Assembly (NCBI GenBank): GCA_029260695.1
Contig: JAJDCT010000004.1
Span: 1 to 9,344 of the forward strand
Length of the DNA: 9,344 bases
Reading direction: 5' to 3'
From: Phycisphaeraceae bacterium
GTDB lineage: Bacteria > Planctomycetota > Phycisphaerae > Phycisphaerales > Phycisphaeraceae
The position numbers and the translations under genes are program-made. The notes below the pieces were generated by a model. The model worked only from the letters and a program-made list of their open reading frames with translations, made no database searches and was not told where the DNA came from. Positions 1 through 7,898 of the stretch are shown piece after piece. Each line of letters begins with the position of its first letter. Within the stretch, counting starts at the first letter, position 1.

Positions 1-668
1 TCGGATACATCCGCCGCCGGGGAGAACACCACAATATCCCCCTCCCGGTAGTCAGGCATCATCGATTGGCCAATCACCGCCGCAGCAAAAGCATCGACAT
101 CGTTCAGACCAGGGCAACTCAGGTAGTCGTCCGCGACACGCGCAGGGTAGTCCAGATCGGTGAACCCACTTGGGTAACCCGCCGCCACCTTGTTCACAAG
201 AGGCACGCGATACAACGCCACCTCGCCCCGAGTCACAGACGACAAATCATTAGCCTCATCACGACTCGTCTCTTCCCGACCAAGCGCCCGCTCAATCCGA
301 CGCCGCAGTTCTCCGCTTCGATAAAGCTCGTCAAGATTTTTTCCTCCACCTCGACGTGCCGTCGCAGACTCTTTGATAAAGCGCGCAAGGTCACGCCCCC
401 GAGCCACATCACCCGCCAACCGTTGAACCTGGTCTCGCACAGCCTCAGGAGCACGCTCCCAATCCCCAGCAAGGCACAAACGCCCGTCTGTCACACCGAG
501 AGCCGCTTCCAAAGACCTAAGCACCTCGTAGGACGGCGGCCGGGCAACCTTGCGATTCTCGATCATCGAAAGGTACCCCTTCGTCGACCCGATCGTCTCT
601 GCAAGTGCCGACAGCGTCAGCCCACGTTCCTGCCGTAGTGTCCGGATCAACTCACCCAGTGTTTGCAT
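1..668 (-). CDS. CI/LexA-like phage repressor, XRE HTH + S24 peptidase (3' end cut by window)
   Basis: Reading leftward from ATG 668-666, an open frame of 222 codons runs off the left edge. Residues about 1-60 form an XRE-type helix-turn-helix DNA-binding domain (LRQERGLTLSALAETIGSTK followed by GYLSMIENRK). Residues 70-150 are a charged linker. From about 152 the protein looks like the S24/LexA self-cleavage domain: VPLVNKVAAGYP carries an Ala163-Gly164 pair where CI and LexA proteins cut themselves, and GQSMMP places the nucleophile at Ser202. The catalytic lysine would lie about 35-40 residues further on, outside the window. By family, such proteins hold a prophage silent and are destroyed after RecA activation during DNA damage. 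The divergent gene at 778 and the palindromic operator between them fit a lysogeny switch. The fold assignment is firm; SOS induction is inferred. Confidence 0.9.
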   Translation of the reverse strand, partial: MQTLGELIRTLRQERGLTLSALAETIGSTKGYLSMIENRKVARPPSYEVLRSLEAALGVTDGRLCLAGDWERAPEAVRDQVQRLAGDVARGRDLARFIKESATARRGGGKNLDELYRSGELRRRIERALGREETSRDEANDLSSVTRGEVALYRVPLVNKVAAGYPSGFTDLDYPARVADDYLSCPGLNDVDAFAAAVIGQSMMPDYREGDIVVFSPAADVS

Positions 669-698
669 GTTAGGTCTCAAAAATAAAGTTCAAAATAT

Positions 699-727
699 AT
701 TAAACATTCTCTTGACGCAGACGTCAA
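699..727 (-). promoter_or_regulatory. Leftward sigma-70-like promoter for the repressor gene
   Basis: On the minus strand TTGACG (727-722), a 17-bp spacer and TTTAAT (704-699) form the exact mirror image of the rightward promoter. Transcription would start near 692 and give a leader of about 24 nt before the repressor ATG at 668. The two promoters overlap by their -35 boxes. Confidence 0.68.
712..727. promoter_or_regulatory. Palindromic operator overlapping both -35 boxes
   Basis: TTGACG-CAGA-CGTCAA is a perfect 6-bp inverted repeat with a 4-bp spacer, nested inside a second perfect inverted repeat, TATTAAAC (698-705) and GTTTAATA (734-741). Both share the centre 719/720. A dimeric XRE repressor is the obvious ligand. 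If so, it would repress both directions at once, including its own gene. Binding itself is inferred. Confidence 0.6.
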
Positions 728-740
728 TATCCGGTTTAAT
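712..740 (+). promoter_or_regulatory. Rightward sigma-70-like promoter for the phage operon
   Basis: TTGACG at 712-717 and TTTAAT at 735-740 are separated by exactly 17 bp, a near-consensus housekeeping promoter. Transcription would start near 747, giving a leader of about 30 nt before ATG 778. The -35 box is one arm of a palindrome, so a bound repressor would block it. Confidence 0.7.
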
Positions 741-777: not shown

Positions 778-1194
778 ATGCAGCACCGATTGAACAACCT
801 CTCCACCCTCGCCCACGATCACCGTCAGATCAAGCGCCAACAGATCGACGATTTGCTGGCACTCGCGGAGTATCTTCCAAAGACCGATCGAGTCCTGATT
901 CAGCAGATTCTACATGGCGACATGCCTGTCGCCCAGATCGCAAGGCTCTACCAAAGGCACCCAAGACATCTTCAGCGTCAAGCCATGTCAATCATTAAAC
1001 GTTTGTCAAATAACTTATTTAAATTTGTAGCTATCCAGATGAATACCCTCCCCATAGAAGTCCGCCCCACCGCCAGGTATGTGGTTTTGCATGGAATGAG
1101 CATGCGAAAAGCCTCCCAGGTCTCCGGCCTGACACTTCACCGTGTCAGACAGTATATGAACACCGTACAAGCGACCGCCCGGCTGTTTTCTTGA
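778..1194 (+). CDS. Small two-HTH protein resembling sigma-70 region 4
   Basis: This 138-residue basic protein opposes the repressor and sits where a lambdoid phage would carry cro or an early regulator. Residues about 37-76 (DRVLIQQILHGDMPVAQIAR and on to KRL) follow the pattern of sigma-70 region 4: a helix, then a turn-containing helix-turn-helix. Residues about 98-132 (ARYVVLHGMSMRKASQVSGL and on) repeat the same layout, so it may be a tandem two-HTH protein. It has no region 2 (core-binding) segment. ATG 778 is chosen because conserved-looking sequence begins there and the promoter lies just upstream; frames starting earlier would cross the promoter. No Shine-Dalgarno is visible. It could be a transcription activator of the downstream operon, an antirepressor, or a distant terminase-type HTH protein. 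I recognise no named family. Confidence 0.7.
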   Translation: MQHRLNNLSTLAHDHRQIKRQQIDDLLALAEYLPKTDRVLIQQILHGDMPVAQIARLYQRHPRHLQRQAMSIIKRLSNNLFKFVAIQMNTLPIEVRPTARYVVLHGMSMRKASQVSGLTLHRVRQYMNTVQATARLFS

Positions 1195-1306: not shown

Positions 1307-1984
1307 ATGCAACTCACCCTAGCCCATAGCGTCCAGTCAGCAGTAGAGCCGACTCCCAACGTCTGCGAGGTCGCCACGATGTTCGGCCTGGGGATCGACC
1401 AAAGCCGACCGATCCAGCTGATCCCAAAGACCGAACTTAAGTTAAGCCCTGGCCAACTCATCTTTGTTACGGGCGCAAGCGGCAGCGGTAAATCCACGAT
1501 CCTCCGGCTGATCCACGAGCAGATCAAACAGGATCCCAACACCCATGCCATTGGCTTCGATAATCTCCCCAAACTCCAGGACAGGCCGCTGGTCGATGTC
1601 TTTCCCAGCCGCCCGCTCAGCAAGACCCTCCAATTGCTAAGCCTCGCGGGACTCAACGATGCATTTGTCATGCTACGCAAACCCTCTGAACTATCCGACG
1701 GGCAGCACTACCGACTCCGGCTGGCACAGGCTATGGCGATGGTCGAAGCCGACGTCATACCCAGCAAACTAAAGATCATCCTGGCAGACGAATTCTGTTC
1801 CACACTCGACCGAGTCACCGCCAAGGTTCTCTCACGCAACGTCCGTAAATGGGTCACCAAATCAAGAGTCTGTTTTGTCGCGGCAACCACACACGACGAC
1901 TTGCTGGAGCCCCTGGCACCGGACACACTCATCGAAAAACACCTCGGCGAGTCGTTGGACCTTGTTGAGAGACCTGCACAATGA
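1307..1984 (+). CDS. Soluble ABC-type ATPase of the phage module
   Basis: This 225-residue protein contains every ABC nucleotide-binding element in order: Walker A GASGSGKST (56-64), signature LSDGQ (129-133, one change from LSGGQ), Walker B KIILADEF with D161 and E162, D-loop STLD (165-168), and switch His196 in TTH. There are no membrane segments and no permease gene nearby, so it is not a transporter. Soluble ABC ATPases usually act on DNA, RNA or a partner enzyme. Its stop overlaps the next start (ATGA), implying coupled translation with the GNAT protein. I recall this pair also occurring as a single fused protein in other bacteria, but that is not checked. ATG 1307 was preferred over GTG 1295; neither has a ribosome-binding site. 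The 112-bp gap upstream has an AT-rich stretch (1262-1292) but no convincing promoter, so read-through from 712-740 is likely. Confidence 0.85.
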   Translation: MQLTLAHSVQSAVEPTPNVCEVATMFGLGIDQSRPIQLIPKTELKLSPGQLIFVTGASGSGKSTILRLIHEQIKQDPNTHAIGFDNLPKLQDRPLVDVFPSRPLSKTLQLLSLAGLNDAFVMLRKPSELSDGQHYRLRLAQAMAMVEADVIPSKLKIILADEFCSTLDRVTAKVLSRNVRKWVTKSRVCFVAATTHDDLLEPLAPDTLIEKHLGESLDLVERPAQ

Positions 1985-2778
1985 TGTCCCCCATCCAGGA
2001 TCGCTTCCTGACGCAGGCCGCCAACAAACTGGATGATGATCTTGAATTGGTGGACGGTTCATTGGCAGATTACAACGCACTAAAAGAGCACCACTACCGC
2101 GCCGATCGACCCGCAACCGCGACGCGCGTACTGGCTTTGCGGTCGACCTCCCGGTCAGTATCCCAGAGATTTCTGGGTAAACCCACGTGCAAGCAGACCG
2201 TAGCTGTGCTGATCGAGTCTTTGCCCAGTCTTTCGTGCACACTTCGTAATTGGGCTCTACACGACCGGTACGGGAATTGGCTGGCTCCCCAACAGCGGGC
2301 AACCCTACTTAACCGTGAGGTCCGAGTGATCAGCCGAGTGGTGGTCCACCCGTGCTGGCGCGGAGTCGGCCTGGCGGTTTGGCTGGTCAAGGCCGCGCTT
2401 AACAAACCAACGACCCTATACACCGAGGCGCTCGCGGCTATGGGCAAAGTTAATCCGTTCTTCGAGCGTTCCGGGATGACCGCATACCACCGCCCCCCGC
2501 ACGCCTTCGATTCAAGGCTCACCGACGCCATGGAATCCGTCGGCCTAAACCCCAACAACCTCGCCTGTCTCGATCAAATACTCACGAAGATCAACTCGCT
2601 CACCGGGATACAACGTGACTGGTTCCACAAGGAGCTATACCGCTGGTACCGACAAAACGGTGGGCGGGGTGTCGTCCACAGCACCAACCCGATGACACAC
2701 CTGCGCACAGCCAGACAACGCCTGATGCTTGAGCCCGTTTACTACCTGCACAACAACTCCGCCACCAAATCAATCTAA
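1981..2778 (+). CDS. GNAT-fold acyltransferase-like protein, possibly Mom-like
   Basis: This is a 265-residue protein. The centre is a GNAT domain: beta strand RVISRVVVHP (115-124), then RGVGLA (127-132), matching the acyl-CoA pyrophosphate loop R-x-x-G-x-G/A, then a helix, and FFERSGM (160-166) as the typical late GNAT motif. The N-terminus holds YNALKEHHYR (31-40). Residues 170-265 form an extension beyond a minimal GNAT, rich in basic and aromatic residues and probably helical. GNAT enzymes usually acetylate amines; phage Mu Mom is a divergent GNAT-fold enzyme that modifies adenine in DNA. The position between an ABC ATPase and ParB/terminase genes suggests DNA or packaging machinery as substrate. 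That role is inferred, and a protein or small-molecule target is possible. ATG 1981 is used; ATG 1984 is an equivalent alternative. The start overlaps the upstream stop by four bases. Confidence 0.78.
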   Translation: MMSPIQDRFLTQAANKLDDDLELVDGSLADYNALKEHHYRADRPATATRVLALRSTSRSVSQRFLGKPTCKQTVAVLIESLPSLSCTLRNWALHDRYGNWLAPQQRATLLNREVRVISRVVVHPCWRGVGLAVWLVKAALNKPTTLYTEALAAMGKVNPFFERSGMTAYHRPPHAFDSRLTDAMESVGLNPNNLACLDQILTKINSLTGIQRDWFHKELYRWYRQNGGRGVVHSTNPMTHLRTARQRLMLEPVYYLHNNSATKSI

Positions 2779-2791
2779 TTACCAATACGCC

Positions 2792-3421
2792 ATGCAAACC
2801 CAAACGATCAAACTCGACAACCTGCGCACTCACCCCGCCAACAGCAACGTCATGCCCGAACACCTCATAACAAAACTCACCAACCATATCGAAAGCACCG
2901 GGCGATACCCTCCCCTGATTGTTCGGCCAATCACAGACAATGACAAAGCCAACACGTCTGGCAACGGTTTCCATGCCTACCAAATCCTAGACGGACATCA
3001 CCGTGTCGCCGCCTTACGCAGACTTGAGCACGATGCTGCCGAGTGTGTCGTCTGGGAGGCGGACGACCGCGAGGCCCTGGTGTTACTGGCGTCACTGAAC
3101 CGACTCCAGGGCCATGACGACCCGCGCAAGCGTGCCAACCTTATCGGATCGCTTGCCGAGAAATACAAGCTCGCATCATTGGCCGATCTCCTCCCGGAGC
3201 GCAAAGACCAACTAAAAAAACTACTCGAAATCCGTGGCCGACCTCCTTCACCTCGCCCGCCCCAGCCAACAGAGCAGATGCCGATGGCGGTACATTTTTT
3301 CCTGTTGCCTCATCAGAAAAAGCAACTGGATAAAACTCTGCGCAGCCTCGGTGGAACACGGGAGGAGGCATTGATGCTACTACTGGACCGACACGCTGAC
3401 ACGGTAGCTCCCAACTCTTGA
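2792..3421 (+). CDS. ParB/Srx-fold domain protein
   Basis: The 209-residue protein starts with the ParB N-terminal pattern: IKLDNLRTHPANSN (6-19), PLIVRP (41-46), and ILDGHHRVAALRRL (65-78), where DGHHR takes the place of the GEHR/GERR nucleotide-handling motif. A helix with SLNRLQGHDDPRKRANLI (101-118) follows. The centre (150-162) is proline-rich, and residues 165-203 form a separate C-terminal region ending in a helical EEALMLLLDRHAD. The canonical ParB central HTH is not evident, so chromosome partitioning through parS is unlikely and no parA is present. Phage proteins with this fold include nucleases and nucleotide-dependent enzymes. ATG 2792 lies 13 bp after the GNAT stop; an earlier in-frame start would overlap that gene and add a low-complexity tail. 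Function within the module is unknown. Confidence 0.82.
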   Translation: MQTQTIKLDNLRTHPANSNVMPEHLITKLTNHIESTGRYPPLIVRPITDNDKANTSGNGFHAYQILDGHHRVAALRRLEHDAAECVVWEADDREALVLLASLNRLQGHDDPRKRANLIGSLAEKYKLASLADLLPERKDQLKKLLEIRGRPPSPRPPQPTEQMPMAVHFFLLPHQKKQLDKTLRSLGGTREEALMLLLDRHADTVAPNS

Positions 3422-3471: not shown

Positions 3472-3954
3472 ATGCCTAGAAAAATCAGCGCCAAGAGACG
3501 CTCAGCCTTGATAAACGACCTGATCAATGCAGATTTTGACCTCACCGCACTACACTCCAAGTACGCACTATCACCGAAAAACCTCTCCATGTGGATCCAG
3601 GATGAAGACAACCATCGTTGCTTGGCCGGGCTGTGTGTTCTCGCAGACCTCCAGACCCAGTTACTTCTCAGCCGGTACCGATTGATCGCGGCCGGGAAAC
3701 TGATTGACCTGGCAACCAGCCAACCCGATGACGGGAAGGCCGGCATGGACATATCCAGGCGTGCCTGTGTTGATCTTTTAAAGCTCGAACTGAAGCGGGC
3801 AGATATCAACGCCGACCTAAGCGTTCGCGCAATCGACAAAGAGACCGCAGACGGCGTGGATTCGCTACGCCAACTCCTCTACTCTGTATCAAGCCCCGAT
3901 GACACCCCGGCATTGATCGCAACCAACTCACCAACAGGTGCCGTGGATGACTAA
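3472..3954 (+). CDS. Helix-turn-helix protein, probable terminase small subunit
   Basis: This 160-residue, mostly helical protein ends eight bases inside the terminase large-subunit gene. A basic N-terminus (PRKISAKRR) is followed by an HTH-like segment (about 16-45: INDLINADFDLTALHSKYAL and on through PKNLSMWIQD), then long helices at 51-82 and 93-114 suited to oligomerisation, and an acidic, flexible tail (125-160). Small terminase subunits have this plan (DNA-binding HTH, helical oligomer core, tail touching the large subunit) and usually lie immediately upstream of the large subunit, as here. They recognise the phage DNA for packaging. The call rests mainly on position and layout. A TTG at 3418 overlapping the ParB stop would add 18 unstructured residues; ATG 3472 is preferred. 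Confidence 0.55.
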   Translation: MPRKISAKRRSALINDLINADFDLTALHSKYALSPKNLSMWIQDEDNHRCLAGLCVLADLQTQLLLSRYRLIAAGKLIDLATSQPDDGKAGMDISRRACVDLLKLELKRADINADLSVRAIDKETADGVDSLRQLLYSVSSPDDTPALIATNSPTGAVDD

Positions 3955-5455
3955 GCGACCGCTCGAAGCGCCGGCTACTTCCATCAAGCAAATCCTTGCA
4001 CTCGAGCCTCTAACGCCCGACGAGTTGCATCGGTTTGTTTGCGTAGCTCTTGGGATGACGGTCCCCCGCGTGCCTCTGGTAGACGGGAGTAGCGCACCAT
4101 TTGATTATCTGATACATGCCTTCTTCGAGGACGTCCACTCCAACGCAACCGCATCCAACAAGGACGCCGTTGTCTGGGCAAACCGAGGCGGCGGCAAGAC
4201 GATGCTGGGTGCGACAGCCACCCTCCTGGACCTGATTTTCAAGCCCGGCATCCAGATCCGAATCCTCGGGGGATCACTGGAGCAGTCATCCAAGATGTTT
4301 GAGCACCTCATCGCGTTGCTTGATCGGCCTTGGTTCCGCAGCCTCTTGGATGGCGAACCCACACAGCGCCGTGTGGCACTGCTCAACGGGAGCCGAGCAC
4401 AACTGCTCGCCGGGTCCCAGCGCTCGGTGCGTGGTGTTCGAGTTCACAAGCTGCGCTGCGACGAAGTCGAGGAATTTGAGCCCGGGGTCTGGGAAGCCGC
4501 TCAGATGGTGACGCGGTCCGGCACCTGCGGAAAAAAGCATGTCCACGGGGCTGTCGAAGCACTGTCGACGATGCACCGACCCTTCGGTCTCATGGCGAAA
4601 ATTACCGACGGCTTCCAGAGAAGCCAACCGGGTGCCTCAAAGCTATTCAAGTGGACCGCACTGGACGTGATCGAGCGGTGCCCCACAGACCGGCAGTGCG
4701 ATGAGTGCGTCCTCTGGGAAGACTGTCGTGGGTTAGCTAAATCGGCGATCGGGTTCATCCCCGTCGACGACCTGGTACGGCAGTGGCACAGAACAAGCCG
4801 GCGTGCCTGGTCTGTCGAGATGATGTGCAGACAACCCCAGGTCAGCGACTGTGTCTACCCCGAATTCGATCCACTCAAACATGTCCTCGAAGACGGCTTG
4901 CCTGACAATCAGGGCCAATGGATTGGCGGCATGGACTTCGGCCTGCGCAACCCGACCGTCATGCTGTGGGCCCGGGTCGACCACACCGATGATTGTGACG
5001 GCCAAACCATATTGCACGTCATCGGTGAATACATCCAGGCCGGCGTGACATTCGACCAACACATGGAGACGATCGACCGACAAGCATCGCTCAACAGCTG
5101 GCCCCGTGCAGACTGGCTGGGGGTTGATCCCGCGGGGAACCAGCGCAACAGCCACACCGGTATCAGCGACGTTCAGGCCCTACGGAAACTCGGCCACACC
5201 GTGAAGACCAAGAGCTCGCCTCTCCGTGACGGCATCGAACGCATCAGACGCCGGCTCGACCGGCACACCCTGCGCATACACCCCCGGTGCAAGAGGCTGA
5301 TCGAAGCGATGAGGTGCTACCACTTCGATGTGAATAACCCCCAAAGGCAAGAGCCGATCAAGGACGGCCCCGACCATCTTTGTGATGCGCTGCGGTATAT
5401 GGTCATCAACCTCGAAGCGGATGCCGGACGCCTGACGGCCTCAAGCTACCTATAA
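3947..5455 (+). CDS. Phage terminase large subunit (ATPase-nuclease)
   Basis: This complete 502-residue packaging motor has an N-terminal ATPase with Walker A in VVWANRGGGKT (75-85) and Walker B in VHKLRCDEVEE (D172, E173), and a C-terminal RNase H-like nuclease with acidic residues at D330 (GGMDFGLRNPTVMLW), D394 (GVDPAG) and D476/D480 (GPDHLCDALRYM). By family the protein cuts concatemeric DNA and pumps it into a procapsid. Between the domains lies a cysteine cluster, C245, C251, C254 and C260, that could bind zinc. All catalytic positions are intact, which argues against decay. ATG 3947 has an AGGTG a few bases upstream; GTG 3938 would be an alternative. No portal or capsid gene follows, and the stop lies 46 bp from a convergent host gene. 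Confidence 0.93.
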   Translation: MTKRPLEAPATSIKQILALEPLTPDELHRFVCVALGMTVPRVPLVDGSSAPFDYLIHAFFEDVHSNATASNKDAVVWANRGGGKTMLGATATLLDLIFKPGIQIRILGGSLEQSSKMFEHLIALLDRPWFRSLLDGEPTQRRVALLNGSRAQLLAGSQRSVRGVRVHKLRCDEVEEFEPGVWEAAQMVTRSGTCGKKHVHGAVEALSTMHRPFGLMAKITDGFQRSQPGASKLFKWTALDVIERCPTDRQCDECVLWEDCRGLAKSAIGFIPVDDLVRQWHRTSRRAWSVEMMCRQPQVSDCVYPEFDPLKHVLEDGLPDNQGQWIGGMDFGLRNPTVMLWARVDHTDDCDGQTILHVIGEYIQAGVTFDQHMETIDRQASLNSWPRADWLGVDPAGNQRNSHTGISDVQALRKLGHTVKTKSSPLRDGIERIRRRLDRHTLRIHPRCKRLIEAMRCYHFDVNNPQRQEPIKDGPDHLCDALRYMVINLEADAGRLTASSYL

Positions 5456-5501: not shown

Positions 5502-5963
5502 TTACTTCCGTCTTTTTCCAAATGGCAGCAGCGAGCGGAGCCCAAGCGTCGCCCCCGATATCTCTTCCCGACGTTCATTCTCGGCCTCACGCATGTGATC
5601 GATCTCTCTTTGAAACTTCTTCTCACAGTTACGCAGGTACCGCCTTGCCTGGAGGTCATCATCAAACTCATCGAGCGTGACCGCCATTAATGTGTGGCCG
5701 ATCTGTATCACGTCGCCCTCGTGCAAAGCCTTGAACTTAACCACCCGCTCGCTGTTCACAAACACGCCGTTGTGGCTTTCCATATCCACGGCGTAGTAGC
5801 AGTTGTCGCTGGACTCTTTACGGACCTCCATGTGTTCGCGAGAGACGCACGGGTCGTTGATCTGCGCCAACAGCTTGTTGTCTCGACCAAAAACAAACGC
5901 TTTGCCACCGATCGTGTACCATTCGCCCTTGTTTTGACCGTTGAGAACTACGATGGTTGCCAT
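5502..5963 (-). CDS. FHA-domain protein
   Basis: This 153-residue cytoplasmic protein is built around one forkhead-associated domain, which binds phosphothreonine peptides. The signature residues are visible: GR at 26-27 (FVFGRDNK), SREH at 41-44, and the SxN-type loop SHNGVFVN at 63-70, ending with HEGDVIQIGHTLMAV (81-95). Residues 100-153 form a highly charged, probably helical tail with a basic end (FGKRRK). FHA proteins usually partner with Ser/Thr kinases, which planctomycetes encode in numbers; no kinase gene is in this window. ATG 5963 is chosen because GGAGG lies 9 bases upstream and the domain begins directly after it. Frames starting further upstream would add an arginine-rich stretch read from the leader. 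Confidence 0.9.
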   Translation of the reverse strand: MATIVVLNGQNKGEWYTIGGKAFVFGRDNKLLAQINDPCVSREHMEVRKESSDNCYYAVDMESHNGVFVNSERVVKFKALHEGDVIQIGHTLMAVTLDEFDDDLQARRYLRNCEKKFQREIDHMREAENERREEISGATLGLRSLLPFGKRRK

Positions 5964-5972
5964 AGACAAACG

Positions 5973-5977
5973 CCTCC
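5973..5977 (-). promoter_or_regulatory. Ribosome-binding site GGAGG of the FHA gene
   Basis: GGAGG on the minus strand lies 9 bases before ATG 5963. It settles that start over the in-frame codons upstream. Confidence 0.75.
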
Positions 5978-6006
5978 GCCGACGTAGATGTCGGGCTCCG
6001 AAACAC

Positions 6007-6022
6007 TTGGCAGAACTGCCAA
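6007..6022. promoter_or_regulatory. Perfect palindrome, operator candidate in the FHA leader
   Basis: TTGGCAGAACTGCCAA has 7-bp perfect arms around a 2-bp centre. It sits just downstream of the candidate -10 box, where a bound dimeric repressor would block transcription. No regulator for it can be named. As RNA it would form a short hairpin, but there is no U-run, so a terminator is unlikely. Confidence 0.45.
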
Positions 6023-6026
6023 CCCC

Positions 6027-6057
6027 AGTATACACCGCGAGGCATAGCTGTGGTCAA
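6027..6057 (-). promoter_or_regulatory. Candidate FHA gene promoter
   Basis: On the minus strand TTGACC (6057-6052) and TATACT (6032-6027) are 19 bp apart. The spacing is longer than ideal but both boxes are close to consensus. The predicted start falls at the palindrome at 6007-6022. Confidence 0.4.
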
Positions 6058-6183
6058 ACCGTGGCTTGCCTTACACCTAGTGGTGGCCCGATATACAGAG
6101 TATAGACCCGTTAAATCATCGAAGTTTCCGATCGCTTGTGCCGCTGGACCGCGACACAACCCCGGTCTTATTAACGCCATCCC

Positions 6184-6210
6184 CGTTACATCTGCCCTTA
6201 CTGATGTACG
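6184..6210 (-). other. Small hairpin downstream of the amidase gene
   Basis: TACATC (6187-6192) and GATGTA (6203-6208) pair around a 10-base loop, and outer CG/CG pairs can extend the stem past one bulged base. It lies 16 bp after the amidase stop in the direction of transcription. There is no clear U-tract, so a terminator role is weak. The rest of the 262-bp spacer 5964-6225 shows only the FHA promoter signals. Confidence 0.25.
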
Positions 6211-6225
6211 CCCCGGGTTTGGCCC

Positions 6226-6936
6226 CTACTCTGGCATCGGGATCATCTCCGTCGGACCACCCTCAAGAGCAGGCCCCAGATCGATCACAGCCGACTCTCC
6301 GTCGCGGAACCGATTGACCCATCCAAGGAACTTCCCATCTTCAAGGTAACGGTAGAAGTCCGCGCCGGGACAACTCGTATCCTCAGCCACATCCCGATGG
6401 CCACCAATTAAAGCATCATCAACGCCGTACTCCTGCGACAACCATGCGACTAAATGTATCGCCGACGTGACCTGGTGTGAACTGATACGTTGGACTTCAA
6501 AGTTTCCCCAGAGTTGGACGCCGATGTGGCCGTGTACGTCGTAATTGGTATTGGTCTCCGGCTCGTACTCAAGGGGCCGACCCTCAAAGACACGACCGTC
6601 CGGCGCGATCAGAAAGTGGTACGGCAGGTCAGGCCAATTTTTGCCGCCGTCCTCGACCGTCTTCTTCCCCCACGCCTGCAAATCCCGGATCTTCTTAAAT
6701 GGATCGCTACCCGCTTTCCAATCAACCCCCGCGTGATGGATCGTGATGAACTTAGGCGTGTGCTTACGTTCTTCTGGGATCTGCAGCGGGTCCGAACCCC
6801 ACTGCTCGGCAGAGATCGTCGAGGGCTTCTCGACTAGGTGTCGAGTCTCTGCGGCATCCTCACCAGAAACACTTCGTGACGTGCAACCACACAACAATCC
6901 AAGGCACAAAGCGCCCGCAAACAGTCTCGTCAGCAT
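6226..6936 (-). CDS. Lipoprotein N-acetylmuramoyl-L-alanine amidase (PGRP/Amidase_2)
   Basis: This 236-residue protein has a short hydrophobic signal (MLTRLFAGALCLGLLCGC) ending in an LCGC lipobox, so Cys18 is probably lipidated and the enzyme anchored in an envelope membrane. The catalytic domain (about 62-205) is the zinc amidase fold of T7 lysozyme, AmpD and PGRPs: FITIHHAG with ligand H67, YHFLIAPDGRVFEGRP (106-121), HIGVQLWGNF (137-146), and GGHRDVAEDTSCPG with ligands H180 and C189. It cleaves the bond between MurNAc and L-Ala in peptidoglycan, for wall turnover or recycling. All metal ligands are present. ATG 6936 is chosen over TTG 6963 because GGAG lies six bases upstream and the signal peptide begins there. 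The 53-bp gap to the upstream mqnD-like gene allows co-transcription; a weak TATATT in it could be an internal promoter. Confidence 0.92.
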   Translation of the reverse strand: MLTRLFAGALCLGLLCGCTSRSVSGEDAAETRHLVEKPSTISAEQWGSDPLQIPEERKHTPKFITIHHAGVDWKAGSDPFKKIRDLQAWGKKTVEDGGKNWPDLPYHFLIAPDGRVFEGRPLEYEPETNTNYDVHGHIGVQLWGNFEVQRISSHQVTSAIHLVAWLSQEYGVDDALIGGHRDVAEDTSCPGADFYRYLEDGKFLGWVNRFRDGESAVIDLGPALEGGPTEMIPMPE

Positions 6937-6989
6937 CTCACGCTCCGTTCTGCCTTTACTCAAAATATAATCATCACGTAATCGAGCGT

Positions 6990-7898
6990 TCAGCCGGGAT
7001 CGACAAAATCAATCTCACCGCAGTCCGGGACCAGCCCCGCAGCCACCGCTTCGCTCAGCAGCTTGCGAACCGCCTCCCGGCCACGGTCGCCGTAGTCAAG
7101 CGTCCACTGATTGACGTACATACCGACGAATTCATCCGCCAACTCCGAGCCCATATCGCGGGCCCAGTTCAACGCAAAATCCACCGCTTCGTCACGGTGT
7201 TCCAATGCATACTCGATCGAGTCAAGCAACACCCGGCAGATCGCCGGCATCTGTTCGCCCAGGTCCCGGCGGATCGCGTTACCACCCAGTGGCAGCGGCA
7301 ACTTCCTAGAATCGGTCCACCACTGGCCCAAGTCACAGACACACGCCAAGCCGTCGTTGCTGTAGGTCAGCTGCCCTTCGTGGATGATAAGACCCGCGTC
7401 GAACTCCCCTGCGACCACCTTGGGGATGATCTCGTCGAACATCACAAACTCGGCGGTCAAATCATCCTTGCTCATCCCCTGCTCCGCGAGCATGAGCTGC
7501 GCCGCCAGCCAGGCCGTGGTCTGATACCCCGGGATCGCCAGGCGTTTGCCCTTGAGGTCCGCGACACTAATCGGCTTGGTCGAGACGATCATCGGGCCGT
7601 ACCCGTCACCCATCGACGATCCGCAACTGGTCAGCGCGTACTTGTCCGCGATGAACGGGTACTGGTGGATCGACAGCGCCGTGATTTCAAGCTCACCCTT
7701 TTCACTGCGCTCGTTCAGCGACTGGATATCCTCCAGCACATGAATGAAATCGTACCGTCCGGTGTCGATCTTCGGGGTCAACACCTTGCCGTCCGGCGCG
7801 GTGAAGTTAGCTAACGGGTACCACATAAACGCGTCATCAGGATCCGGGCTGTGCCCGATCCGCAGCGTCATGCGCTCGGCATCGATTTTGGTGTTCAT
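6990..7898 (-). CDS. mqnD: 1,4-dihydroxy-6-naphthoate synthase (MqnD family)
   Basis: This 302-residue protein has the periplasmic-binding-protein-like fold of the MqnA/MqnD family and acts in the cytoplasm. IGHSPDPDDAFMWYP (14-28) is the family's N-terminal signature, and GLIIHEGQLTY (169-179) contains H173, matching the catalytic histidine of MqnD. In the futalosine route MqnD converts cyclic dehypoxanthine futalosine to 1,4-dihydroxy-6-naphthoate on the way to menaquinone. Other motifs include TSCGSSMGDGYGP (90-102), GKRLAIPG (117-124) and FDEIIPKV (154-161). No other mqn gene is in the window, so MqnA remains a less likely alternative. ATG 7898 gives nine residues before the next Met; neither start has a good Shine-Dalgarno. 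A minus-strand TACACT (7912-7907) lies so close to the start that the transcript might be leaderless. Confidence 0.85.
   Translation of the reverse strand: MNTKIDAERMTLRIGHSPDPDDAFMWYPLANFTAPDGKVLTPKIDTGRYDFIHVLEDIQSLNERSEKGELEITALSIHQYPFIADKYALTSCGSSMGDGYGPMIVSTKPISVADLKGKRLAIPGYQTTAWLAAQLMLAEQGMSKDDLTAEFVMFDEIIPKVVAGEFDAGLIIHEGQLTYSNDGLACVCDLGQWWTDSRKLPLPLGGNAIRRDLGEQMPAICRVLLDSIEYALEHRDEAVDFALNWARDMGSELADEFVGMYVNQWTLDYGDRGREAVRKLLSEAVAAGLVPDCGEIDFVDPG

What the first reader, a model, noticed from the sequence alone, without database searches (positions are those of the whole stretch)
1307..3421. ABC ATPase + GNAT + ParB module in front of a packaging terminase: candidate DNA-modification or DNA-marking system
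Seen: three adjacent genes, the first two coupled by an ATGA overlap and the third after 13 bp, with intact Walker/signature motifs, an acyl-CoA loop (RGVGLA) and a ParB-type DGHHR motif, followed by terminase subunits. Known: phage Mu Mom is a GNAT-fold enzyme that modifies adenine in DNA, ABC ATPases without permeases often work on nucleic acid, and phage ParB-fold proteins include nucleic-acid enzymes. Inferred: the three proteins act together on phage DNA, with the ATPase loading or scanning, the GNAT transferring an acyl or related group, and ParB marking or cutting, to evade host nucleases or license DNA for packaging. The chemistry is not known.
Basis: partly seen in the sequence, partly recalled or inferred. 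Interest (0 to 1): 0.75.

Follow-up and report, generated by a model that had tools for sequence, protein, structure and literature searches.

The report
Planctomycete gene-transfer-agent packaging operon
This stretch of a planctomycete genome is a virus-derived DNA-packaging operon that is found, together with a separate cluster of capsid genes, across much of its bacterial class, and it is likely the packaging half of a domesticated virus (a gene transfer agent) that would move the bacterium's own DNA between cells.

Summary
The three genes are real and placed as described: soluble ABC ATPase, GNAT, ParB-like protein, then a TerS-like gene and a TerL with its catalytic residues. They are not shown to be a DNA-modification cassette, and no prophage surrounds them. 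The window is one operon (divergent LexA/CI-type repressor, HTH regulator, ABC, GNAT, ParB, TerS, TerL) beside ordinary host genes in a Phycisphaeraceae-like planctomycete. TerL is found in 150 of 298 genomes of the class. In 23 of 24 operon-bearing genomes an SPP1-type portal lies elsewhere (8.5-83 kb away in 14 of 17 measured pairs), heading a portal-scaffold-capsid cluster; the window's own genome has it on another contig. TerL and capsid co-occur (both 124, neither 140 of 298). TerL and portal trees largely follow the host, near relatives share the flanking host genes, and dN/dS is 0.075-0.20 for all seven genes. Best reading: an ancient gene transfer agent that I found unreported in this phylum, probably released when the repressor self-cleaves. 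What ABC-GNAT-ParB does is unproven: the trio precedes the terminase in some 109-115-kb phages too, yet fused ABC-GNAT genes also occur without packaging genes. No particle has been shown; this is comparative evidence only.

The parts
3..668 (-). LexA/CI-type repressor (HTH + S24 peptidase), cut by the contig start
   Evidence: Pfam HTH_3 2.1e-11, Peptidase_S24 1.9e-5; AAGY cleavage-like site and GQSMMP
688..705 (.). likely repressor operator GTTCA-N8-TAAAC (one mismatch to GTTCA-N8-TGAAC)
712..740 (+). promoter-like TTGACG-17-TTTAAT, read by eye; the promoter scan did not call it
778..1194 (+). HTH regulator, weakly sigma-factor-like, likely activator
   Evidence: TIGR02937 6e-4, 19.5 bits, below its cut-off of 42.9; in 60 of 61 named loci
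1307..1984 (+). soluble ABC ATPase
   Evidence: Pfam ABC_tran 2e-10; phrog_293 1.8e-29
1981..2778 (+). GNAT acyltransferase
   Evidence: phrog_886 1.2e-12; model and fold matches
2792..3421 (+). ParB-like protein
   Evidence: phrog_723 6.2e-13; Pfam ParB_N 0.0012, below cut-off
3472..3954 (+). small-terminase-like protein, named by position only
   Evidence: no Pfam or PHROG match; homologue before TerL in 24 of 61 named loci
3947..5455 (+). terminase large subunit
   Evidence: phrog_5653 1.9e-16; ATPase and nuclease residues invariant in 18 rows
5502..7898 (-). host flank FHA - amidase - MqnD, shared by L156, L157 and L159; not part of the element

Best explanation
The window carries the regulatory and DNA-packaging operon of a virus-derived element whose portal and capsid genes lie on another contig of the same genome, and it most likely works as a vertically inherited gene transfer agent. 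Shown by sequence: repressor, HTH, ABC, GNAT, ParB, TerS-like and TerL genes in one block; a portal-scaffold-capsid cluster elsewhere in the genome; class-wide co-occurrence; gene trees that largely follow the host; purifying selection. Inferred: the LexA/CI-type repressor holds the operon off through the GTTCA-N8-TGAAC operator; damage-induced self-cleavage would release the HTH regulator, which would switch on the structural cluster in trans; ABC-GNAT and ParB would prepare or choose chromosomal DNA for the terminase (ABC as an ATP-driven switch on DNA, GNAT acetylating a DNA-bound protein or the DNA, ParB loading on DNA); TerS/TerL would fill heads with host DNA; a holin-like protein would release them.
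For: TerL at E<=1e-20 in 150 of 298 class genomes. SPP1-type portal in 23 of 24 operon-bearing genomes, against 5 of 24 for the HK97-type portal run as a control. Shared cluster: portal in 20 and capsid (SU10_MCP 1.5e-86) in 20, scaffold-like in 19, holin-like in 11 of 21 stretches. Own genome: portal, scaffold, capsid and the next gene on contig C444. TerL and capsid both in 124, neither in 140, Fisher 1.4e-46; 16 f4 genomes lack TerL, capsid and GNAT together. Distances of TerL, portal, MCP, GNAT, ABC track RecA, r 0.62-0.79, p=0.0002; TerL and portal trees recover most host families. Shared host flank in three relatives and omega 0.075-0.202 in 21 of 21 operon comparisons. TerL catalytic residues kept. 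Cleavage-like A-G in 50 and SMxP in 53 of 56 repressors; operator in 38 of 57 repressor-HTH regions, 6.3 expected; the same logic as RogA-GafYZ of the Caulobacter agent (passages).
Against: No particle, packaging or transfer data. Of 150 TerL genomes 26 gave no capsid hit and 15 no GNAT hit; 8 have capsid without TerL; G131 (98% complete) lacks portal and capsid; strain ZRK34 has the operon but no capsid match. Capsid genes are broken or interrupted in G053, G167, G001, G066 and G206, and four listed TerL and four listed capsid matches hold a stop. Two IMG/VR contigs that look like phages (L236, L237) carry capsids 61-67% identical, nested in the element's clade. G005's TerL groups with viral TerLs. 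The capsid tree follows the host less well. A tail-region protein of a relative found nothing in the 77%-complete own genome, without positive control. Most tail-region genes have no annotation. dS of 0.96-2.18 makes omega approximate. ABC-GNAT persists without packaging genes elsewhere.
Confidence: 0.68

Rival explanations
1. A domesticated virus kept for something other than gene transfer, for example release of lytic or killing particles, or protein shells, with packaging genes kept for head assembly or DNA disposal.
For: The vertical inheritance, split loci and constraint fit any domesticated particle; tail-region genes are mostly unannotated; no transfer evidence exists.
Against: TerL ATPase and nuclease residues are invariant and TerL is under constraint, which a DNA-free particle would not need.
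Confidence: 0.15
2. A very common temperate phage or satellite lineage that keeps re-entering this class, seen partly as remnants.
For: Related TerL and capsid genes in IMG/VR contigs; two phage-like contigs nested in the capsid clade; interrupted or broken copies; CI-type repressor.
Against: Portal and TerL lie 8.5-980 kb apart in 17 same-contig pairs; shared host flank; trees follow the host; TerL neighbours read are host genes.
Confidence: 0.08
3. One reading: ABC-GNAT-ParB modify or mark DNA to protect it or license it for packaging.
For: Mom and RNA/tRNA acetyltransferases lead the Foldseek list for the GNAT; one phage ParB homologue profile is annotated as DNA methyltransferase (phrog_498); the trio sits before terminases. 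A licensing role is compatible with the best explanation.
Against: Mom is not distinct from other GNATs by VIA Z; no base-modification partner enzyme in the operon; solo ABC-GNAT genes without packaging genes.
Confidence: 0.07
4. A decaying relic with no present function in the window's genome.
For: Broken copies exist in some relatives; the genome is fragmented.
Against: All seven window genes are open and constrained, and the capsid cluster is intact as far as the 4.8-kb contig shows.
Confidence: 0.02

Closest known systems
Gene transfer agents, above all the Caulobacter one (RogA/GafYZ), and RcGTA
   Same: Split loci, host-tracking inheritance, constraint, retained TerL/portal/capsid, and a LexA-like repressor with inverted repeats at the activator promoter rather than at the structural cluster (passages of PMC9632790, and PMC12946183).
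   Different: Other phylum; SPP1-type portal and SU10-type capsid; packaging genes sit with the repressor and with ABC-GNAT-ParB; no transfer shown. Homology to RcGTA or CcGTA genes was not tested.
Packaging block of 109-115-kb phages nickie, RHEph10 and BUCTxx99, and the phage-plasmid-like SSU5
   Same: ParB-like, ABC and GNAT genes just upstream of a DNA-binding protein, TerL and portal; SSU5 has ParB, ABC and GNAT at the end of its record, terminase not in the stretch read.
   Different: There the ParB genes come first; their TerL is only distantly related (2e-10 to 4e-8); portal and, where read, capsid follow.
Phage Mu Mom; TmcA/NAT10
   Same: GNAT fold; TmcA also joins a P-loop ATPase to a GNAT.
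   Different: Sequence identity 10-16% in those alignments; the ATPase here is ABC-class; substrate unknown.
Fused ABC-GNAT proteins (recalled as COG2401; no such model in the libraries used, and no paper found)
   Same: The same two domains in one chain.
   Different: In the window they are two overlapping genes inside a packaging operon.

Membership tests
Gene transfer agent | virus-derived packaging and head genes retained (TerL, portal, capsid) | tested here: met
Gene transfer agent | genes dispersed over more than one chromosomal place | tested here: met
   17 same-contig pairs: TerL-portal 8.5-83 kb in 14; 169, 690 and 980 kb in 3; some genomes are contiguous (L120, L124)
Gene transfer agent | vertical inheritance with the host | tested here: met
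   Mantel tests against RecA and trees, shared flank; one marker gene only
Gene transfer agent | kept by purifying selection | tested here: met
   omega 0.075-0.202, seven genes in three relatives
Gene transfer agent | no replication or integration genes of its own | tested here: inconclusive
   none recognised among neighbours read by eye; no exhaustive search made
Gene transfer agent | a clade apart from viral relatives | tested here: inconclusive
   TerL: 23 of 24 rows in one group, support 93, G005 with viruses; capsid clade holds two phage-like contigs
Gene transfer agent | particles that package mainly host DNA and deliver it | not testable with these tools
   needs experiment
Rhodo-, Barto- and Brachygtaviriformidae | homology to their TerL and capsid | not tested
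   no comparison run; families known from passages of PMC9662315
Mom-type DNA modification enzymes | closer in structure to Mom than to other GNATs | tested here: inconclusive
Anti-phage defence systems (PADLOC) | match to a defence model over the whole system | tested here: inconclusive
   ABC matches ATPase models (mad3 1.3e-10), ParB a methyltransferase model weakly (0.0032); GNAT and TerL none

The most novel reading that the evidence does not exclude
Phycisphaerae planctomycetes have their own ancient gene transfer agent of independent origin, freed by self-cleavage of a LexA-type repressor, in which an ATP-driven acetyltransferase (ABC-GNAT) and a ParB clamp choose and license stretches of the host chromosome for the terminase: a packaging-site selector unknown in other gene transfer agents.
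Probability: 0.2. Interest if true: 0.92.

Novelty: new variant of a known kind. Interest (0 to 1): 0.8.

Why it matters
Gene transfer agents studied in detail come from few lineages, mostly Alphaproteobacteria (passages of PMC12946183), though that paper also reports activity in gut Oscillospiraceae and Ruminococcaceae. One spread through a class of Planctomycetota would be another domestication, a route of gene exchange in an abundant and hard-to-work-with phylum, and comes with named handles (repressor, regulator, packaging operon, capsid) that make it directly testable. It also turns an odd ABC-GNAT-ParB trio of large phages into a packaging question. A cultured carrier exists: strain ZRK32 (CP066225) has the operon (L174) and the capsid gene, and hexagonal particles reported from it were attributed to a 21.9-kb extrachromosomal phage (passages of PMC10945688).

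Tried and rejected
Rejected: permease-coupled ABC transporter (no permease gene recognised in the operon). Rejected as the general reading: intact prophage around TerL (neighbours read by eye are host genes). Tested and not found: the GTTCA-N8-TGAAC operator upstream of the portal (3 of 25 against 4.2 expected), so the repressor is not inferred to act there. The promoter scan did not call the promoter I read by eye. Own-genome searches with ParB_N and DUF1559 added little. A tail-region protein gave no match in the own genome, without a positive control. Defence-model scan: generic ATPase matches only.

Literature: 'gene transfer agent' with 'Planctomycet' gave 34 papers, 20 listed, none of those titles on a planctomycete gene transfer agent; with 'terminase' and 'Phycisphaer' one paper, listing only; seen as listings; COG2401 and SSU5/ParB searches gave none. 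PMC7947584 (seen as passages) places the TerL of a predicted prophage of the planctomycete Zavarzinella near RcGTA-like TerLs; that is a different class and was not compared. The library lacks most subscription papers, so 'unreported' means only not found in these searches. PMC10945688, PMC7947584, PMC9662315, PMC12946183 and PMC9632790 were seen as passages, the others as listings.

Counting rules: the TerL set of 150 leaves out 19 of 169 genomes with E above 1e-20; MCP at E<=1e-10 and GNAT at E<=1e-5; handles were copied by hand from the listings. GNAT occurs in 194 of 298, 59 of them without this TerL; all three genes in 116, none in 85. G053 was left out of the RecA comparisons, short or split proteins out of trees, and TerL-portal type comparisons used 17-22 genomes. 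Rows L207 and L220 (first part out of frame) were in A6 but not in A7. ORFs came from a simple script, so starts are approximate; one search read one file only and was redone. In the phylum run 22 of 51 capsid matches lie outside the class; of 7 such genomes looked at, six show the capsid without our portal or scaffold models and one 3-kb contig (L412) shows scaffold- and next-gene matches too. Confidence in the best explanation was lowered from 0.70 to 0.68 on the recount of stops and missing capsids.

Full report
What is there. The window is the whole of contig C4 (9,344 bp) of a 77%-complete genome. It holds a divergent repressor (minus strand, cut by the contig end), an HTH gene, then ABC ATPase, GNAT, ParB-like, TerS-like and TerL on the plus strand, followed by FHA, amidase and MqnD (minus) and a pilin-like gene (plus). 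The four closest named relatives are Phycisphaeraceae or Planctomycetota MAGs (TerL 72-85% identical), so I take the host to be a Phycisphaeraceae-like planctomycete and the searched 'class' to be Phycisphaerae (inference).

The trio in phages. tblastn finds the ABC gene in 90 and the GNAT in 6 of 50,697 phage records. In nickie, RHEph10 and BUCTxx99 the order is two ParB-type genes, ABC, GNAT (annotated as ABC subunit or hypothetical), DNA-binding or hypothetical protein, TerL, portal (the GNAT identified). So the link between this trio and packaging is not peculiar to the window.

No prophage around it. The window's TerL has matches in 169 of 298 genomes of the class, 150 at E<=1e-20, in most listed rows one match per genome. 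Twenty stretches of 17-20 kb from 20 genomes, and 80 named loci, show the same block: of 61 named loci with enough upstream sequence, 55 have the divergent repressor, 60 HTH, 61 ABC, 61 GNAT, 45 ParB, 24 a recognisable TerS; one has a portal within the locus and none a capsid or scaffold gene. Genes beside TerL that I read by eye are host genes.

The missing half. An SPP1-type portal occurs in 23 of 24 operon-bearing genomes; the HK97-type portal, run as a control, in 5 of 24. The portal neighbourhoods share portal (20 stretches), capsid (20), scaffold-like (19) and following genes, with a holin-like protein in 11 and a lipoprotein in 7 of 21 stretches. The capsid protein is SU10-type (1.5e-86), mean column identity 68% over 14 genomes. 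The window's own genome has portal, scaffold, capsid and the next gene on the 4.8-kb contig C444. Of 17 genomes with both genes on one contig, TerL and portal lie 8.5-83 kb apart in 14 and 169-980 kb in 3. In G009 (L120) repressor, HTH, ABC, GNAT, TerL, portal, scaffold and capsid form one run, perhaps the ancestral layout.

Inheritance and selection. TerL and capsid are both present in 124 and both absent in 140 of 298 genomes (Fisher 1.4e-46); 16 genomes of family f4 lack TerL, capsid and GNAT together. Protein distances follow RecA (r 0.62-0.79, p at the permutation floor). TerL and portal trees recover most host families and the order (support 99), with an f19 row inside f22 in the TerL tree; the capsid tree is poorer. 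Three close relatives share FHA-amidase-MqnD after the operon, and the seven operon genes are constrained (omega 0.075-0.202; flanking FHA, amidase and MqnD 0.033-0.102). TerL ATPase and nuclease residues are kept in 18 rows. This pattern is expected of a gene transfer agent or another domesticated virus rather than of a mobile prophage.

Control logic. The repressor has an S24 domain, with a cleavage-like A-G in 50 and SMxP in 53 of 56 homologues. A GTTCA-N8-TGAAC dyad (up to two mismatches) occurs in 38 of 57 repressor-HTH regions (6.3 expected) but at the portal in 3 of 25 (4.2 expected). The HTH protein has a weak, below-cut-off sigma-factor match. This resembles the Caulobacter system, where LexA-like RogA represses gafYZ, whose products activate the structural cluster (PMC9632790 passages). 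That damage induces the system, and that the HTH protein acts on the portal cluster, are inferences.

Evidence against and limits. There is no particle evidence. G131 lacks portal and capsid; ZRK34 has the operon without a capsid match; capsid genes are interrupted or broken in five genomes, and stops occur in four listed TerL and four listed capsid matches. Three IMG/VR contigs fall in the capsid clade: L238 carries the structural cluster and may be host DNA, but L236 and L237 carry replication- or methylase-like genes by eye and look like phages, so capsid exchange with phages is likely. G005's TerL groups with viral ones. Outside the class, 22 of the 392 genomes searched have a more distant capsid; six of seven looked at show a different cluster, in one confirmed case next to argS.

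Verdict.

Noticed in passing
L080 and L416 (G167), L413 (G001), L414 (G066), L415 (G206): The capsid gene of the element is interrupted by inserted or rearranged DNA, near codons 57-66 in G167 and G001, near codon 62 with an inversion in G066, and at codon 323 in G206. The G167 insert (~11.5 kb) carries a large serine recombinase, an AAA ATPase and a phage capsid protein (Pfam); recombinase-like ORFs in G066 and G206 were seen by eye. Satellites or phages may use the capsid gene as attachment site.
   Followed up: partly
L113-L117, L121, L122: Fused ABC-GNAT genes without packaging genes in four other families, in three stretches with an S24-type repressor; in L117 the gene sits between an RpoC-like and a Kdp-like gene by eye.
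   Followed up: partly
L404, L406, L408-L411: In another part of the phylum (family f48 and relatives) a more distant single-copy SU10-type capsid lies in its own conserved cluster with a weak SPP1-portal match, in L409 beside an arginyl-tRNA synthetase gene: possibly a second domesticated element.
   Followed up: partly
L174 (CP066225, strain ZRK32): Cultured planctomycete with the operon and capsid gene; published hexagonal particles were attributed to an extrachromosomal 21.9-kb phage. Whether they belong to this element is untested.
   Followed up: partly
window 667-675 and 741-749: ATGTTAGGT at the repressor start and its inverted copy ACCTAACAT after the operon's -10-like hexamer, the latter repeated in several relatives: a possible second regulatory site.
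   Followed up: no
L041 and L079 (G053): TerL with an internal stop and a truncated capsid gene: an apparently decaying copy.
   Followed up: no
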